Positions 17,265-23,707 of a DNA stretch of 64,000 nt are shown in pieces. Origin of the DNA: Parachryseolinea silvisoli (GTDB lineage Bacteria > Bacteroidota > Bacteroidia > Cytophagales > Cyclobacteriaceae); NCBI RefSeq assembly GCF_021190955.1, contig NZ_JAIOAO010000001.1, positions 682,001-746,000 on the forward strand, written 5' to 3'. Each line of letters opens with the position of its first letter. Within the stretch, counting starts at the first letter, position 1. The notes beneath the pieces were generated by a model. That model made no database searches. It worked only from the letters and a program-made list of their open reading frames with translations, and had not been told where the DNA came from. A program made the translations under genes and the position numbers.

Positions 17265-17588
17265 TCAAATGAAATTCACCACCGAAGTTGATAAGTCAGA
17301 GGCGATAACCCGAAAACGCCCATTTTGCGGTTGTCCAATAAAAAACACCTTGACGCACCTCTCAATAGTTTGAGAAGTTTTTCGTTTTGATTTTCGATAT
17401 TCCCAAGGCGGTGTTGGATTATTTTCACTCCATAAACCATTTCGGCCCGCCATTGCTGTTGCCTCTAATTCGGACATCGTCTTACTGGACGAATATTTTT
17501 TATAATGCCAGGCGAGGCCGTTGCGAATAAGTTCTTGGTTTAAAATCTTGCCATCTGAGTTAAATGCGGACCGGTATGACAAGGTCAA
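17265..17588 (-). pseudogene. 3' fragment of a staphylococcal-nuclease-like gene
   Basis: The residues DGKILNQELIRNGLAWHYKKYS followed by ARNGLWSENNPTPPWEYRK-type sequence match the C-terminal third of thermonuclease (SNase) domains, where LN.EL...GLAW.Y and GLW......PPWE.R are conserved. The N-terminal half with the catalytic Arg, Asp and Glu residues is absent. Upstream of about 17575 the frame continues without a start codon into sequence that is antisense to another gene, so homology stops abruptly. Only a TTG at 17588 is available as a start. A 40-residue tail follows the SNase region. It is read as a 5'-truncated pseudogene. Confidence 0.65.
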
Positions 17589-17610
17589 TTTTTTATTATC
17601 CCTTGGCGAA

Positions 17611-17904
17611 ATGCCGGATGTGCCAAAGGCGTCACCGGAGTTGGATAGCGATCAGCAGCTGTTTGAGTGGCTGCGTGAGCAAGGGATGCTGGTGATGGTG
17701 TTTCTGCCAGGGCAGCGTGAATCGATTATGGGAAGAGTCGAAGTTGTAGGCGACAAAAGTTGCCAGCTGCGTTTGGTCAGCGATGAACTCGAAGTGTCGG
17801 AGGATTTGTTGGAGCTTGCTTATAATAAGCTACATATCGTGGTGGTGGAGACGCATTTGCTGCGGATGTTTGATCGGTATCTCGTGGAGATGGGGCATAC
17901 TTAG
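17611..17904 (+). CDS. Hypothetical protein, probably a 5'-truncated fragment
   Basis: From the ATG at 17611 this encodes 97 residues with natural composition (SDQQLFEWLREQGMLVMVFL, RVEVVGDKSCQLRLVSDELE, then a Leu/His-rich helix ending LVEMGHT). The frame is open and still protein-like upstream to about 17565, where it meets the broken end of the SNase-like fragment on the other strand. Both genes therefore seem cut at the same point, and this one is probably the 3' part of a longer protein. No family is recognised. Confidence 0.45.
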   Translation: MPDVPKASPELDSDQQLFEWLREQGMLVMVFLPGQRESIMGRVEVVGDKSCQLRLVSDELEVSEDLLELAYNKLHIVVVETHLLRMFDRYLVEMGHT

Positions 17905-18694: not shown

Positions 18695-19242
18695 GGCAGA
18701 TCGAGGCACTAGCGGGGCACATCATGTGGACACCTGCCTATCATGAGGCCAATCTCCAGGCTGGCATGGCACATTTTATGATCACATGTTAGTCACTTGT
18801 TGAATCACTTTTGACAGATGGTTTTGAATCAAATTTCGTTATTTTGAAAAAATGGAATTTTGGGGTCCCAGGGAGGGGTGAGGAGTTGCGAGACGGGTCG
18901 GAGCCAGGACGAAAAAAAGGCATGCTTCGCCGGGGATCCTTCGAGTCTGCCACAGGGTTCCTCCATAGATGTTCCACAGATGAACCACGGATGATCTACG
19001 CTTTATAGGAGTAGGACATGGCTGGGTCAAGCCTGAAATCAGGAAGTCAAGAGCCCAGGTTACATTGGCATTATAAGGCCACCCCGCGGACACGGTATTA
19101 GTATTGCTTACTGGCGGGTCTGGCGCAAGGTATCAGCCCTGTCTGCCGGGCGGCCCGTCTATTTGTTTCTTTCATACAGAATGAACATCGATTTTAAAAT
19201 AAAATAAATATACCTTAGCCACATTCTATTTATACTACAAAA
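18695..19242. other. Intergenic region, no confident gene
   Basis: About 550 bases precede the nuclease-STAND locus. Short frames exist on both strands (for example 18811-19008 plus and 18789-18977 minus) but they mirror each other and have no domains, so none is called. The segment at about 18850-19000 is G-rich and richer in GC than its surroundings, and may be a dispersed repeat or element end. The promoter of the next locus should lie at the right end, next to the palindrome. Confidence 0.35.
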
Positions 19243-19258
19243 GTATAGTATACTATAC
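19243..19258. promoter_or_regulatory. Perfect 16-bp palindrome, probable operator
   Basis: GTATAGTATACTATAC is a perfect palindrome located 51 bases before the ATG of the nuclease-STAND frame. Its position in an AT-rich stretch typical of a promoter makes it a likely operator. The XRE regulator encoded after the STAND gene is the obvious candidate ligand (inference). Confidence 0.5.
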
Positions 19259-19308: not shown

Positions 19309-19827
19309 ATGACAAAAGGAATCTACCTCGAAGTAAAGCTCAAAGATTTTCTCCAGTCCCTGTTTGAAGACCTCGGATTTCCCGTGTTGGAGGCCCGGCA
19401 ACAGACGTCGGGCACACAAAATGGGTTTGACATCCGGATCACCTTCTTAGATGCCTCCGGGAAAAAGCGGGAGTTTTATGTTGAATGTAAAGATTACACC
19501 ACTCCCCTCCCCTGGAACGAGCTGCTCCGAAAAATCCACGAGCTTTATGCCTCTGGCCATCCCGCCGACGGGTTCATCGGTATCTCCCCGCGCCGCAACC
19601 TGAGTAATATCAATGCCAACGTACAGCATACGCTTCCCAAGCTGGTGAAATTCCCGGTACGTTTCTGGACACCCGATGCGCAGGTAAAAGAATATCTATC
19701 GCTCGATAAAACACTCTTCCAGGAAATCTATTCCGAAGCACCACCCGATGTCGATCCCGAGAAGATAAAGCAGAAGTTGCAATGGGTTATTCGCGGCATG
19801 CTGCGAGAGCGAGATGACTTTCTCTAG
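19309..19827 (+). CDS. PD-(D/E)XK nuclease domain, 5' part of interrupted STAND gene
   Basis: These 172 residues read as a restriction-endonuclease-like effector domain: Asp41 in NGFDIRITF and Glu59-x-Lys61 in FYVECKD form the D...ExK catalytic set, followed by an alpha-beta core (HPADGFIGISPRRNLSNINA). The frame ends at a TAG at 19825-19827 but continues in the same phase through 19828-19905 into the NTPase segment, and that bridge contains the DIVGRTDELHAL preamble expected before a STAND P-loop. It is therefore the N-terminal domain of a 1345-residue protein split by one amber codon. Alone it lacks the sensing parts. Nuclease-STAND-TPR proteins include known anti-phage sensors of the Avs type; this relation is inferred. 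Confidence 0.75.
   Translation: MTKGIYLEVKLKDFLQSLFEDLGFPVLEARQQTSGTQNGFDIRITFLDASGKKREFYVECKDYTTPLPWNELLRKIHELYASGHPADGFIGISPRRNLSNINANVQHTLPKLVKFPVRFWTPDAQVKEYLSLDKTLFQEIYSEAPPDVDPEKIKQKLQWVIRGMLRERDDFL
19825..19827 (+). other. In-frame TAG codon inside a nuclease-STAND-TPR frame
   Basis: The codons run ...GAC TTT CTC TAG GGC ACT GCC..., with open, protein-like sequence in the same frame on both sides. A single C-to-T change from CAG would create it. It lies in the linker between the nuclease and the NTPase, not inside a fold. Confidence 0.85.
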
Positions 19828-19905
19828 GGCACTGCCTTCCCGAAAGACCTGACCCTAAAAATTCCCAAGATTCATACAGACGATATCGTTGGCCGTACCG
19901 ACGAA

Positions 19906-22900
19906 TTGCATGCCTTACACCGGGCCTTGTTTCAAAATAAGCAGGTTGTTCTGGTCAATGGCCTGGGAGGTATTGGCAAAACGACACTGGCGCAAGGATA
20001 TCTCAGTACGTACTACCAGGACTATCAGCATGTTGCCTGGATCACACAGGTCGGCACGGACATTACTCAGAACATTGTCCAGGATGAGGGGCTTCTCCGC
20101 AGCCTGGCTGTTTCGCGGGGCGGAAAGGATACCCTGCAACTATTTCAAGAGATTCTGTACAAGTTCAAAACGGTACCCGGCAAACCCAATCTGCTGGTAT
20201 TGGACAATGCCGACGGCACCCTGGCAAATCTGAGAGATATGCTTCCCGGACAACCCGATTGGCATCTGTTGGTGACGTCGCGCGAACGGATCGAAGGGTT
20301 TATGGTACAAGAGATTGGGTTCCTGTCGCCGGATGCAGCACTAACGTTGTTTAAGAAACATTGTAGCCGTATAAACGAAGATGCCAAGATCTGCGGGCTG
20401 CTGGAAGCCGTAGACTACCACACATTAACCTTGGAGATACTGGCGAAGACGGCGCAGCTCCAGCGCGTCGACATCGAAACGTTGAAGTCGGCGATCGGGC
20501 AAGACCTGCGCGCAAACGTCTATGTGGCGCACAAAGGCGATACAGTGGATCATGTTCGGTCGTATCTGTCTTCCCTTTTCACGCTCAGCCAGTTAACCGA
20601 AAAGGAGGTATGGCTTATTAAATATTTCGCCTGCCTGCCGGCGGAGTATCATTCGTATGCAACATTGTGTGAATTGATAGCCCCGGAGAAAAGCCGGCAG
20701 GAGGCTTTTTTCTCAGAGACACTGAAGGGCCTGTCTGATCAGGGCTGGTTGTTGTATAATGCGGAGACCGACAGCTACAAGATGCATCGCATCATTACCG
20801 AAGTAGCCGTTAAAAAGTTACCCATTACCTTAGCCGATGTCGAATCGCTTGTGGACAGCGTCTCTGTCCGGTTACAATTCAATCAATTTGAGGAGAGCCC
20901 CGTCGAGAAGTTTCCCTGGATTCCTTTTGGAAAGATTCTGACAGATACTTTTTCGGATGACATGTCTGCGAAAACAGCTCATTTGCAGCTCTATCTCGCG
21001 ATGGTCCTTCATGAGTATGGAGATTATGTCGGGGCAAAGACCGTGGCAGGACAGGCCGTTGCCACCTTTGAATGCCTGGGCGAGGACGTCGACTTCTATC
21101 GCACGCAGAGCTACGCATGCCTAGGAAACATACTTCGATCATTGGGTGATTATACCGGAGCGATCCGTTGGCTCGAAAAGGCCATCGTTCTGGAAGAGCA
21201 ATATGTAGGAATGAACGACCCCCTTCTCTCAAAAGAATATTCAAGCCTGGCCATGATATTCTACGACCTTGGAAAATATTCAACTGCCAAACGATTGCTC
21301 GAAAAGTGTGTGCGCTCGGCAGAAAGGGAGTTTGGAGAAGAGCATACCGTTACGGCCAATCGGTATTCCAAGCTGGGCGGCGTGCTCTTGGAAATGGGTG
21401 ATCATTCCGGTGCCCAGGCATTATTTGAAAAGGCCCTCCATGCAGGAGAAAAACACCTTGGGCCTGATCACCCCGACTTAGCGACACAATATTCAGATAT
21501 CGCTGTAACACTTCAGAATCGTGGCGACTATTCCGGTGCAATCGAGTTATTCGAAAAGATAGTTGTGTCTACCGAAATGAATTTTGGTTCCGATCACCCC
21601 ACGATGGCGCGCCATCTTTCTAACCTGGCCTCGGCACGCCGGGATACCGGGAATTACAGCGAGGCCAAGACATTATACGAAAGGGCTCTCGGGGTAGCCG
21701 AGCGCTGTCGCGGTATTGATCATCCGGATACCGCACCATACTACTCCAACCTGGGCACATTACTGCATGCCATGGGCGACTACGCCAACGCTAAAAAATT
21801 GCTTGAGAAAGCTGTATTTATAGGAGAACGTATTCAGGGACGCGATCATCCTTCCCTGGCCAATAGCATCGCCAACCTGGCATCGCTACTACAAACACAG
21901 GGCGAGTATGCCAAGGCACAAAAACTATATAAAAAGGCAATACAATTGAGTGAAAAAAAGTTGGGTATCGATCATCCTCACACCGCCATACTATACTCCA
22001 ACTTAAGTTCCGCACTGGCAGAAGTATTTGATTTTATACAGGCAAAGGAATTACTTGAAAAAGCTATTCGTTCTGACGAAAAAAACTTTGGCACAGATCA
22101 TATCATTACAACGCTGAAGTATGCCAATTTGGCCACGTTGCTTCATGAAATCGGCGACTATGAAACAGCCCAGCCGTTACTGGAAAGAGTAGTAAGATCC
22201 AGTGAAAAAATCTTTGGGGAGGCTCATCCGAATGTTGCGATACATTATTCCAACCTGGGATTATTTCTTCTTCACCGTGAGGACTATACCGGCGCAAAGG
22301 CGTTGCTTGAAAAGGCGGTGGCATCCGATGAACAAAGTCTGGGGGAAGATCATCCTATTACGGCGGAGAAGTATTCCAGATTAAGCATGGTGCTCGATAG
22401 GCTGGGCGATCGTGCCGGTGCAAGTCATTTGCAGGAGAAAGCTATCCGCATAAAGACGAAACATTTAGGTGAAAACCATCTTACGATCGTTGAGGATTAT
22501 CTCATCTATGCCCGCACGCTCCTGGCCATGAATGATTCCGCCGGCGCCAGATCCTTCATCGAGAAGGCCACACGCATCTATTTTAAACACGGCCCTAAGA
22601 ATCTTTCGGGCCTGGCACTTGACGATCAACAGCGTGATGCCATCCTTGCAATGCTTGCGGTCATTGATGAACAAGATCTTAACGCCATATTCGCCGGGCT
22701 TAACATTGCCAAAACAGGTCGGGCGAACCCAAATCGTTCCAATACTGTACTTCCGCCGGCGCCGCAACCCATGAAAAAGCACGACGGGATTTCAGCACCA
22801 AACGTCACACGGATGGAAGAGGATTGGGAAGGGCTGGACATGATCGATAAAACGGCTCTTTCCTGGCTGAATAAAGAATCGGGCGCATTATCGCTACTCG

Positions 22901-23346
22901 GCGAACAGACGACCACAAAAGCCACGCTGAAGAAGACAATGAAGTTTATCGAGCGGAAATTTGGTACGGACGAAAAAGCTATCGTGTGGCATTACACTAA
23001 TCTCGCCGAAGACCTTTTTAACGCTCAAAACTTTGAGTGTGCAAAAGAGGTCCTCAAAAGAGTTATCGCGCTCTATGAAAAACAATGCCTCACCCAAGAC
23101 AACCGAATTGTAGTTGCCTATAATCTGTTGTCGCTCGTATTGTTCATGACCGGTGATTATCACGAGGCTATGGATCTCTTTGAGAAAATGATTATCTCCC
23201 ACAAGGAGCATACCACTGAAACCATTCAACATTATGCACAATTAGCGGATCTATTAAAAAAAACAGGGGATCATGCCGGCGCGAAAACAGTGCGAAAAAA
23301 GGTCCAGTGGGCCAAACAACATGCCAGGCGCCAGCGGAATAATTAA
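19906..23346 (+). CDS. STAND/NB-ARC NTPase with about 16 TPRs, 3' part of interrupted gene
   Basis: From the ATG at 19906 this encodes 1146 residues. The P-loop is GLGGIGKTT (19-27), Walker B NLLVLD (95-100), a sensor arginine in TSRERI (124-129), a winged-helix region about 225-300, and an MH motif (KMHRI) at 292-296 like the MHD of NLR proteins. About 13 kinesin-light-chain-type TPRs of exactly 42 residues follow (about 355-900; core YSNLG..L...GDY..A..L.EKA and HP), then a linker and three more repeats (about 1010-1135). The GRTDEL motif needed before the P-loop is encoded upstream of this ATG, so the true protein probably starts at 19309. STAND proteins oligomerise when the repeats sense a ligand and then release the N-terminal effector, here a nuclease. 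Confidence 0.85.
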   Translation: MHALHRALFQNKQVVLVNGLGGIGKTTLAQGYLSTYYQDYQHVAWITQVGTDITQNIVQDEGLLRSLAVSRGGKDTLQLFQEILYKFKTVPGKPNLLVLDNADGTLANLRDMLPGQPDWHLLVTSRERIEGFMVQEIGFLSPDAALTLFKKHCSRINEDAKICGLLEAVDYHTLTLEILAKTAQLQRVDIETLKSAIGQDLRANVYVAHKGDTVDHVRSYLSSLFTLSQLTEKEVWLIKYFACLPAEYHSYATLCELIAPEKSRQEAFFSETLKGLSDQGWLLYNAETDSYKMHRIITEVAVKKLPITLADVESLVDSVSVRLQFNQFEESPVEKFPWIPFGKILTDTFSDDMSAKTAHLQLYLAMVLHEYGDYVGAKTVAGQAVATFECLGEDVDFYRTQSYACLGNILRSLGDYTGAIRWLEKAIVLEEQYVGMNDPLLSKEYSSLAMIFYDLGKYSTAKRLLEKCVRSAEREFGEEHTVTANRYSKLGGVLLEMGDHSGAQALFEKALHAGEKHLGPDHPDLATQYSDIAVTLQNRGDYSGAIELFEKIVVSTEMNFGSDHPTMARHLSNLASARRDTGNYSEAKTLYERALGVAERCRGIDHPDTAPYYSNLGTLLHAMGDYANAKKLLEKAVFIGERIQGRDHPSLANSIANLASLLQTQGEYAKAQKLYKKAIQLSEKKLGIDHPHTAILYSNLSSALAEVFDFIQAKELLEKAIRSDEKNFGTDHIITTLKYANLATLLHEIGDYETAQPLLERVVRSSEKIFGEAHPNVAIHYSNLGLFLLHREDYTGAKALLEKAVASDEQSLGEDHPITAEKYSRLSMVLDRLGDRAGASHLQEKAIRIKTKHLGENHLTIVEDYLIYARTLLAMNDSAGARSFIEKATRIYFKHGPKNLSGLALDDQQRDAILAMLAVIDEQDLNAIFAGLNIAKTGRANPNRSNTVLPPAPQPMKKHDGISAPNVTRMEEDWEGLDMIDKTALSWLNKESGALSLLGEQTTTKATLKKTMKFIERKFGTDEKAIVWHYTNLAEDLFNAQNFECAKEVLKRVIALYEKQCLTQDNRIVVAYNLLSLVLFMTGDYHEAMDLFEKMIISHKEHTTETIQHYAQLADLLKKTGDHAGAKTVRKKVQWAKQHARRQRNN

Positions 23347-23419: not shown

Positions 23420-23707
23420 TTGGAGGCCGTGAAAGAAGATGAACTCCTGGCGGCCCTCCAAACGCGCATTGGATTAAAGATCACCACCCTTCGTAAAGAA
23501 AAGGGATACACCAGCCACGAGGACTTTGCTCACGAGCACGACATCCCGCGCATGCAATACTGGCGGATTGAGAAAGGTAAGACCAACCTGACCCTACGCA
23601 CCCTTACCAAAATACTGCTTATCCATGGACTGACCATCGAGCAGTTCTTCGCCTCCCTGCCGAAAGAATCCCGTAAGACAGCACGCTCAACCAAAGAATG
23701 CCCCTAA
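23420..23707 (+). CDS. XRE-family helix-turn-helix regulator
   Basis: This is a 95-residue single-domain DNA-binding protein: LKITTLRKEKGYTSHEDFAHEHDIPRMQYWRIEKGKTNLTLRTLTKILLIHGLTIEQFF is a standard Cro/C1-type helix-turn-helix with the W/YxxExGxxNLTLxTL core. The start is TTG at 23420 or GTG at 23429; no in-frame ATG is near. It lies 73 bases after the STAND gene on the same strand, so it may control that locus through the palindromes at 19243-19258 and 23369-23387. It is not annotated as an antitoxin because no small toxin is next to it. Confidence 0.8.
   Translation: MEAVKEDELLAALQTRIGLKITTLRKEKGYTSHEDFAHEHDIPRMQYWRIEKGKTNLTLRTLTKILLIHGLTIEQFFASLPKESRKTARSTKECP

What the first reader, a model, noticed from the sequence alone, without database searches (positions are those of the whole stretch)
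19309..23346. Nuclease-STAND-TPR defence-type gene split by one in-frame TAG
The PD-(D/E)XK domain (19309-19827) and the NTPase-TPR part (from 19906) are in the same frame; the 26 codons between them are open and contain the GRTDEL preamble of the NTPase. A single TAG at 19825-19827 separates them. Either this strain has an inactivated immune sensor, or the codon is read through or reinitiated, which would give two products with and without the nuclease. The arrangement resembles Avs/NLR-type sensors but with 42-residue kinesin-like TPRs as the sensing part.
Basis: partly seen in the sequence, partly recalled or inferred. Interest (0 to 1): 0.75.

Follow-up and report, generated by a model that had tools for sequence, protein, structure and literature searches.

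The report
Probable defence gene broken by stop
A bacterial gene that looks like an immune sensor (a DNA-cutting domain, an ATP switch and a long repeat arm in one protein) carries a single stop codon between cutter and switch, which most likely leaves it broken in this strain.

Summary
In detail: a 172-codon ORF (19309-19827) and an open stretch of 1172 codons (19828-23343) share one frame and are separated only by TAG 19825-19827. The downstream part is an NB-ARC ATPase plus twelve 42-residue TPRs. The upstream part is a probable Mrr-like PD-(D/E)XK nuclease; the motif is present, but the profile match is below the curated cut-off.
One orthologue, in another genus of the family (G136), has nuclease, NB-ARC and TPR as one 910-aa frame, collinear with the window across the TAG at 50% identity. 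The codons after the TAG encode residues invariant in 7 of 7 ATPases. No ordinary start precedes the P-loop except two TTGs lying after those residues.
Relatives with separate effector and ATPase genes look different: the ATPase has its own ATG 24-36 codons before the junction, and four of six split pairs tested share a short motif at low shuffle rates; the window has neither.
The ATPase shows no excess of lineage-specific changes, so the stop is probably recent. Best reading: a fused nuclease-NLR sensor of a known kind, newly inactivated. Sequencing error or leaky readthrough remain possible.

The parts
19309..19824 (+). Probable Mrr-like PD-(D/E)XK nuclease (effector) domain, 172 aa; motif GFD (D at residue 41) and ECK (E59, K61)
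   Evidence: Mrr_cat, sub-threshold; motif residues kept in the G136 orthologue, 48% identity; low-confidence model, helix-strand-strand-strand-helix-strand order; positions
19825..19827 (+). In-frame TAG in the effector/ATPase linker
   Evidence: collinear homology on both sides
19828..19905 (+). 26 codons after the TAG: start of the ATPase module (LT...VGR), untranslated if translation restarts at TTG 19906
   Evidence: L8, T9, G22, R23 invariant in 7 of 7 sequences; 70% identical to G136 over the 23 aligned codons
19906..20960 (+). NB-ARC (AP-ATPase, STAND) domain and the region after it: Walker A 19960-19986, Walker B 20191-20214, MHD-like KMH around 20782 (end approximate)
20989..22500 (+). 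Twelve contiguous 42-residue TPR (TPR_10/TPR_12, kinesin-light-chain-like) repeats; after them a spacer and a second helical hairpin block up to 23343 (boundaries approximate)
   Evidence: repeat register; eleven markers spaced exactly 42; helical hairpins; later hairpins at residues 1031-1171
23344..23346 (+). Normal end of the frame (stop codon)
19243..19258 (.). Perfect 16-bp palindrome 50 bp upstream of the ATG; possible operator, function not shown
   Evidence: single exact site in the 7.9-Mb genome
23420..23707 (+). Small HTH_3 (XRE) regulator directly downstream; link to the system not shown
   Evidence: no such gene recognised among the ORFs of 90 aa or more in the G136 region

Best explanation
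The locus is a solo NLR-type sensor gene: an N-terminal probable PD-(D/E)XK (Mrr-like) nuclease, a central NB-ARC ATPase switch and a C-terminal arm of twelve 42-residue TPRs, encoded as one polypeptide in the ancestor. Inferred mechanism of the intact form: the TPR arm binds an invader-derived ligand, the ATPase changes state and assembles into an oligomer, and the nuclease domains are brought together and cut DNA, stopping the infection. In this strain one in-frame TAG in the linker between nuclease and ATPase uncouples the parts: a free nuclease domain of 172 aa that can no longer be assembled, and an ATPase-TPR part without an efficient start and without its conserved first residues. The gene is therefore most likely a recent loss-of-function allele. 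Shown here: anatomy, collinearity with an intact homologue, lack of an ordinary restart, lack of two-gene features. Inferred: nuclease activity, phage sensing, loss of function.
For: One intact fused orthologue in G136 (910 aa, one frame), aligned collinearly to the window over residues 7-585 with one TAG. Of 29 distinct homologue loci with an ATPase N-terminal match, 22 have an N-terminal extension of 70 codons or more from an in-frame ATG, so fusion is the usual state. Effector swapping on a shared ATPase: DUF4062 in L013, HNH in L015 (10 of the 17 proteins scanned). Post-TAG codons conserved. First in-frame ATG after the TAG is at 20239, beyond Walker B; of ATG, GTG and TTG only TTG 19906 and 19927 precede Walker A. 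TAG is an ordinary stop here: it ends 10 of the other 43 ORFs that I took as genes in the window. No relaxed constraint: window-specific changes 42, 35, 38, 39, 33 against 42, 54, 55, 45, 38 for G136 with five outgroups, so the stop is not an old lesion.
Against: Only one intact orthologue with this nuclease was found, at about 50% identity, and the linker differs by a short indel, so the exact column of the stop is not aligned with certainty. No close relative was available: 0 of 6 other genomes of the genus have the gene. Everything except the TAG is intact, which a functional recoding or a base-calling error would also predict. The nuclease assignment is sub-threshold by Pfam, absent for the G136 copy at E 0.01, not significant by fold search, and the G136 copy instead matches a PHROG labelled RusA-like resolvase at E 4.8e-06 while the window copy matches none.
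Confidence: 0.76

Rival explanations
1. Sequencing or assembly error: the strain's gene is intact and the TAG is a base-calling artefact.
For: Everything on both sides of the stop is intact and conserved; a single wrong base would look like this. The genome is a draft of 13 contigs.
Against: No reads at hand; single substitutions are rare in assemblies (own knowledge), the site has no long homopolymer, and no second isolate could be checked.
Confidence: 0.1
2. Programmed two-product gene: UAG is read through at some rate, giving a small amount of the nuclease-armed receptor and an excess of free nuclease domain, as a way to keep the armed receptor scarce.
For: Both sides still look constrained. 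A divergent relative (L016/L061, G090) has its effector/ATPase junction interrupted at an A10 run ending in A-AAA-AAG-TAG, where a -1 slip would rejoin the frames. Intragenic second products exist in another PD-(D/E)XK defence protein, Rpn (PMC10327210, outline with abstract and introduction seen).
Against: No tRNA-CUA among 16 pattern hits (incomplete); no slippery site at the window's TAG; the G136 orthologue needs no such device; the G090 case has no significant downstream RNA structure (z -0.59) and may itself be a homopolymer indel.
Confidence: 0.09
3. True two-gene arrangement: nuclease and ATPase-TPR are separate genes, the second started by reinitiation.
For: Separate effector and ATPase genes do occur among divergent relatives: 5 of 29 loci have the ATPase starting at its own ATG 24-36 codons before the junction (L017, L018, L019, L097, L099), plus the plasmid pair in L109.
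Against: The window has no ATG/GTG there; the only TTG candidates, 19906 and 19927, lie after the invariant LT and GR residues. Split pairs often share a short motif across the break (shuffles reaching the score: L018 1/500, L019 0/500, L017 1/500, L109 8/500; not L099, 371/500, nor L097 by this test, 158/500, though a shared stretch is visible by eye); the window does not (97/500).
Confidence: 0.05

Closest known systems
AP-ATPase (NB-ARC) STAND proteins with C-terminal TPRs and exchangeable N-terminal effectors (Kaur et al. 2020, PMC7159879; Kaur et al. 2021, PMC8195603; passages seen)
   Same: NB-ARC ATPase, TPR arm, N-terminal part that changes between relatives; restriction-endonuclease-fold domains, the Mrr-like clade included, are among the effectors these papers list
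   Different: The passages seen describe REase effectors in other assemblies (vWA ternary and EAD systems, TRADD-N proteins); I did not see this exact three-part protein in the passages read
Avs (AVAST) nuclease-STAND sensors (Avs5 paper PMC12931631, passages seen)
   Same: Effector-ATPase-repeat plan; Avs1-Avs4 act by a nuclease that cuts phage and host genomes; TPRs are predicted in some Avs5
   Different: No PADLOC Avs model matches; NB-ARC type ATPase; regular 42-residue TPR_10 arm
Two-gene NLR/effector pairs with shared short motifs (BASS amyloid signalling; PMC7889193, PMC8086366, passages seen)
   Same: Some divergent relatives of this ATPase (L018, L019, L109) look like such split pairs
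   Different: The window has no shared motif and its G136 orthologue is of the fused type
Mrr / MspJI family restriction endonucleases
   Same: Motif D...ExK and element order; MspJI 4f0p is rank 2 of the fold search
   Different: Fold match not significant (E 0.2); Pfam below cut-off

Membership tests
NB-ARC / AP-ATPase STAND | Pfam NB-ARC over curated cut-off | tested here: met
   33.4 bits against 23.5
NB-ARC / AP-ATPase STAND | Walker A, Walker B and MHD-like motif | tested here: met
   GLGGIGKTT, LLVLDNAD, KMH; Walker A core and MH invariant in 7 of 7
NB-ARC / AP-ATPase STAND | Ligand-triggered oligomerisation | not testable with these tools
   needs biochemistry
TPR_10 (kinesin light chain-like) repeat arm | 42-residue helical repeats in tandem | tested here: met
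   12 TPR_10 stretches, exact 42-residue spacing, helical hairpins in the model
PD-(D/E)XK, Mrr_cat | Profile match over curated cut-off | tested here: not met
   17.8 bits against 21, E 0.0038; no hit for the G136 copy at E 0.01, which matches a RusA-like PHROG instead
PD-(D/E)XK, Mrr_cat | Catalytic D...ExK motif in a beta-sheet core | tested here: inconclusive
   D41, E59, K61 present and the same in 2 of 2; element order right in a low-confidence model, mean pLDDT 47.8; fold search not significant
Avs (AVAST) | Match to a PADLOC Avs model | tested here: not met
   Only PDC-S73, 16.2 bits, for the ATPase part; none for the nuclease part
FxSxx-COOH system TPR protein (NF040586) | NCBIfam model over cut-off | tested here: met
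   340.7 bits against 300, best stretch in the TPRs
FxSxx-COOH system TPR protein (NF040586) | FxSxx peptide and processing genes alongside | tested here: inconclusive
   No such family among nine neighbouring proteins scanned with Pfam; the peptide itself was not searched for
Two-gene effector/NLR pair (BASS type) | Separate ATG for the ATPase gene before its conserved preamble | tested here: not met
Two-gene effector/NLR pair (BASS type) | Short motif shared by effector C-terminus and ATPase N-terminus | tested here: not met
   97 of 500 shuffles reach the window's score
Anti-phage defence system | Protection of a host against phage | not testable with these tools
   No defence model among 9 neighbours scanned; needs plaque assays

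The most novel reading that the evidence does not exclude
The stop is functional: bacterial NLR-type sensors of this family limit the supply of armed receptor by recoding at the effector/ATPase linker (UAG readthrough here, slippage on A10 with a dnaX-type A-AAA-AAG heptamer next to UAG in the G090 relative), so that most ribosomes make unassembled effector and a few make the complete sensor.
Probability: 0.07. Interest if true: 0.75.

Novelty: new member of a known kind. Interest (0 to 1): 0.3.

Why it matters
If the stop is an ordinary nonsense change, it is one more case of a costly or self-harming immune sensor lost in one lineage while an intact copy persists elsewhere; the useful part is a rule for telling broken fused sensors from true two-gene effector/NLR pairs (own ATG before the ATPase preamble, often a motif shared across the break). 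If instead the stop is leaky by design, dosage control by recoding would be a new regulatory layer for bacterial NLRs.

Tried and rejected
Search for more copies of the nuclease: none besides the window's own in 390 genomes of the order and 395 of the phylum, own included in both counts; only own and G136 in 390 of the family; no plasmid match; no viral contig. Genus of G136: only G136 itself of 6. In 295 genomes of the class, 9 match the G136 protein; only the window's own match reaches the nuclease core, the other 8 start at query residue 164 or later (G136 is not among the matches of that sample). ATPase in phage records and viral contigs: none. In plasmids the ATPase has 28 distant matches, all under 60% identity; I opened three of them.

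Suppressor tRNA: a pattern for CUA anticodons gave 16 places, fewer than its reversed control (36), and ARAGORN found no tRNA-CUA in them. The pattern would miss unusual tRNAs.

Codon-bias test of the pieces: nuclease, linker and ATPase pieces score best of the three forward frames in the reading frame (0.16, 0.175, 0.169), but the 78-nt linker scores higher antisense (0.348), so it is uninformative there; I gave the TPR piece a start out of frame, and its reading-frame value is the second figure (0.107).

Fold search of the nuclease model: no significant hit. PHROGs: the G136 nuclease region matches a RusA-like family at E 4.8e-06, the window's matches none; I did not resolve this. RNA families between 17500 and 24900: none up to E 1. 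Palindrome as a regulon site: its two one-mismatch copies lie inside a gene (L105) and just past the end of a frame (L106), so no regulon is seen. TPR array as recently amplified: rejected, repeats are on average 49% identical in DNA and no tandem array is called. The A10 junction of G090 as proof of recoding: not accepted, no significant structure and homopolymer errors are possible.

Rows set aside before the 29-locus count: L057 (same gene as L012), L086, L087 and L102 (no ATPase N-terminal hit); L028 is in the 29 but unreadable because of N runs; L016 is in the 29 as a frame break; L030 and L032 (second pieces of genes already counted) were not entered, nor was the window itself. L099 is counted as split, but its ATPase hit is weak (E 2e-06) and its upstream ORF has only 55 aa; L018 is counted as split, but its ATPase is itself frame-broken further on. 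In one search L016 gave 25/500, from the same A run read in two frames.
Full report
What is there. The frame from ATG 19309 runs 172 codons to TAG 19825-19827 and is then open for 1172 further codons to a stop at 23344-23346. Pfam gives NB-ARC (33.4 bits, cut-off 23.5) and TPR_10 in 12 stretches for the second part; the repeats sit in exact 42-residue register, twelve in a row, and are predicted as a helical array (ten-residue means of pLDDT mostly 67-92, one of 57), followed by a low-confidence spacer and a further block of helical hairpins; the ATPase part of that model is of low confidence. The first part matches Mrr_cat below its curated cut-off (17.8 against 21 bits, E 0.0038). D41, E59 and K61 of a D...ExK motif are present and kept in the only orthologue, and a low-confidence model shows the helix-strand-strand-strand-helix-strand order of restriction-endonuclease folds; the fold search is not significant, with MspJI second and EndoMS fourth in the list. 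That these two are PD-(D/E)XK nucleases, and what order their elements have, is from my own knowledge. Against it, the G136 copy has no Mrr_cat match at E 0.01 and matches a PHROG labelled RusA-like resolvase (E 4.8e-06). I therefore call it a probable nuclease.

The host. The window is part of a 7.95-Mb draft genome of 13 contigs. In the family sample, 17 of 196 genomes, own included, carry a relative of the ATPase. The gene is sporadic: of the 6 other genomes of the genus none has a DNA match over 19309-23346 (G156 matches only beside it, at 17557-17897, in the dispersed repeat and in the downstream HTH gene) and none has the nuclease. The one divergent NB-ARC/TPR gene that the protein search found in a sister species, G156, is itself broken by a frame change. 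Nine neighbours scanned show no defence model, apart from weak controller-like matches of the HTH gene, so no recognised island surrounds it.

Is the split ancestral or a lesion? In G136 (another genus, same family) the nuclease, NB-ARC and TPR parts are one frame of 910 aa. Its first 585 residues align collinearly with the window at 50% identity, E 4e-196, with one TAG in the window's copy. The codons just after the TAG are the start of the ATPase module: in an alignment of seven ATPases, the residues L8, T9, G22 and R23 after the TAG never vary, and these 26 codons are 70% identical between window and G136 over the 23 aligned.

Could translation restart? After the TAG the only ATG/GTG/TTG codons before Walker A (19960-19986) are TTG 19906 and TTG 19927, both downstream of those invariant residues; the first in-frame ATG is 20239, beyond Walker B. 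Of 44 window ORFs that I took as genes by eye, the two pieces included, 36 begin with ATG, and 10 of the 43 others end in TAG, so TAG is a working stop here. A restart would thus be weak and would yield an incomplete ATPase.

What do real two-gene relatives look like? I examined the junction in 29 distinct homologue loci. 22 have an N-terminal part of 70 codons or more from an in-frame ATG. Five (L017, L018, L019, L097, L099) have a short ATPase N-terminus with its own ATG 24-36 codons before the junction and a separate ORF upstream. One (L016) has a frame break, and one (L028) is unreadable. In split pairs, the end of the upstream product and the start of the ATPase often share a short motif: shuffled sequences reach the observed score in 1/500 (L018), 0/500 (L019), 1/500 (L017) and 8/500 (plasmid pair L109), but in 158/500 (L097) and 371/500 (L099). 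For L097 a near-identical stretch is visible by eye, further inside the effector, whose domains are EAD11 and CHAT. This resembles the published two-gene NLR/effector clusters with BASS amyloid motifs, described as mainly actinobacterial and cyanobacterial (PMC7889193, passages; PMC8086366, passages). The window shows neither own ATG nor shared motif (97/500). It is therefore best read as a fused type with a lesion and not as a two-gene type.

How old is the stop? With five outgroups, the window's ATPase has 42, 35, 38, 39 and 33 lineage-specific changes against 42, 54, 55, 45 and 38 in G136. There is no sign of long relaxed selection. A stop of recent origin, a sequencing error, or a functional stop would all fit; the test speaks only against old decay.

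Readthrough. Sixteen places in the genome match a CUA-anticodon pattern and none is a tRNA-CUA by ARAGORN; the pattern is not exhaustive. No slippery run lies at the window's TAG. In G090 (L016/L061), by contrast, the effector frame runs into GAA-AAA-AAA-AAG-TAG exactly at the junction, and the ATPase frame is the one reached by a -1 slip. A-AAA-AAG is the E. coli dnaX heptamer (own knowledge). Downstream RNA structure is not significant (z -0.59). A search for papers joining frameshifting with anti-phage and NLR terms returned two papers whose titles and abstract openings do not concern this (listing only). I keep this as a lead, not as support for the window's stop.

Likely mechanism of the intact form, inferred: ligand binding by the TPR arm, ATPase-driven assembly, and DNA cleavage by juxtaposed nucleases, as for nuclease-bearing Avs sensors (PMC12931631, passages). 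The family frame is that of AP-ATPases with TPRs and exchangeable effectors (PMC7159879 and PMC8195603, passages). Different N-termini on the same ATPase were seen here: DUF4062 in L013 and HNH in L015 (10 of the 17 proteins scanned; the other eight have no Pfam name at the N-terminus). By name it is not an Avs, and NCBI's FxSxx model has its best stretch in the TPRs. My paper searches (listings) showed no title or abstract opening about this exact protein; the library lacks most subscription papers, so this is no claim that it is unpublished.

Verdict. Observation confirmed; the 'inactivated sensor' branch is preferred at 0.76; artefact 0.10, programmed readthrough 0.09, two-gene arrangement 0.05. 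The kind is known, and the lesion is ordinary.

Noticed in passing
L061 8405-8418, minus strand (G090; same site in L016): Effector/ATPase junction of a divergent relative is interrupted at an A10 run ending A-AAA-AAG-TAG; a -1 slip would fuse a 142-aa N-terminal domain to the NB-ARC/TPR frame. Slippage, phase variation or homopolymer error are all possible.
   Followed up: partly
L018, L019, L097, L109: Two-gene effector/NB-ARC-TPR pairs in Bacteroidota-type relatives with short shared motifs across the break (in L097 by eye only); L097's effector is EAD11 plus CHAT. They look like BASS-type signalling pairs.
   Followed up: partly
window 18781-19110: Dispersed repeat of about 330 nt directly upstream of the gene: five near-full copies elsewhere in the genome at 82-88% identity and several partial ones, also pieces in G156; no Rfam match in this stretch.
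   Followed up: partly
window 19243-19258: Perfect 16-bp palindrome 50 bp upstream of the nuclease ATG, a single exact site in the genome; two one-mismatch copies lie in or just after genes.
   Followed up: partly
window 23420-23707: Small XRE/HTH_3 gene right after the frame, with a weak restriction-controller-like PADLOC match (E 2.9e-08); a 115-bp stretch of it has a DNA match in G156; no counterpart recognised among the ORFs of 90 aa or more in the G136 region.
   Followed up: partly
L090 2014-4109 (G156): The sister species' divergent NB-ARC/TPR gene (the ATPase of L018) is broken by a frame change inside the ATPase region.
   Followed up: partly
window 19828-23343: NCBIfam NF040586 (FxSxx-COOH system TPR protein) passes its cut-off, best stretch in the TPRs, although no such system was seen among the neighbours scanned; automatic annotation may mislabel this gene.
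   Followed up: no
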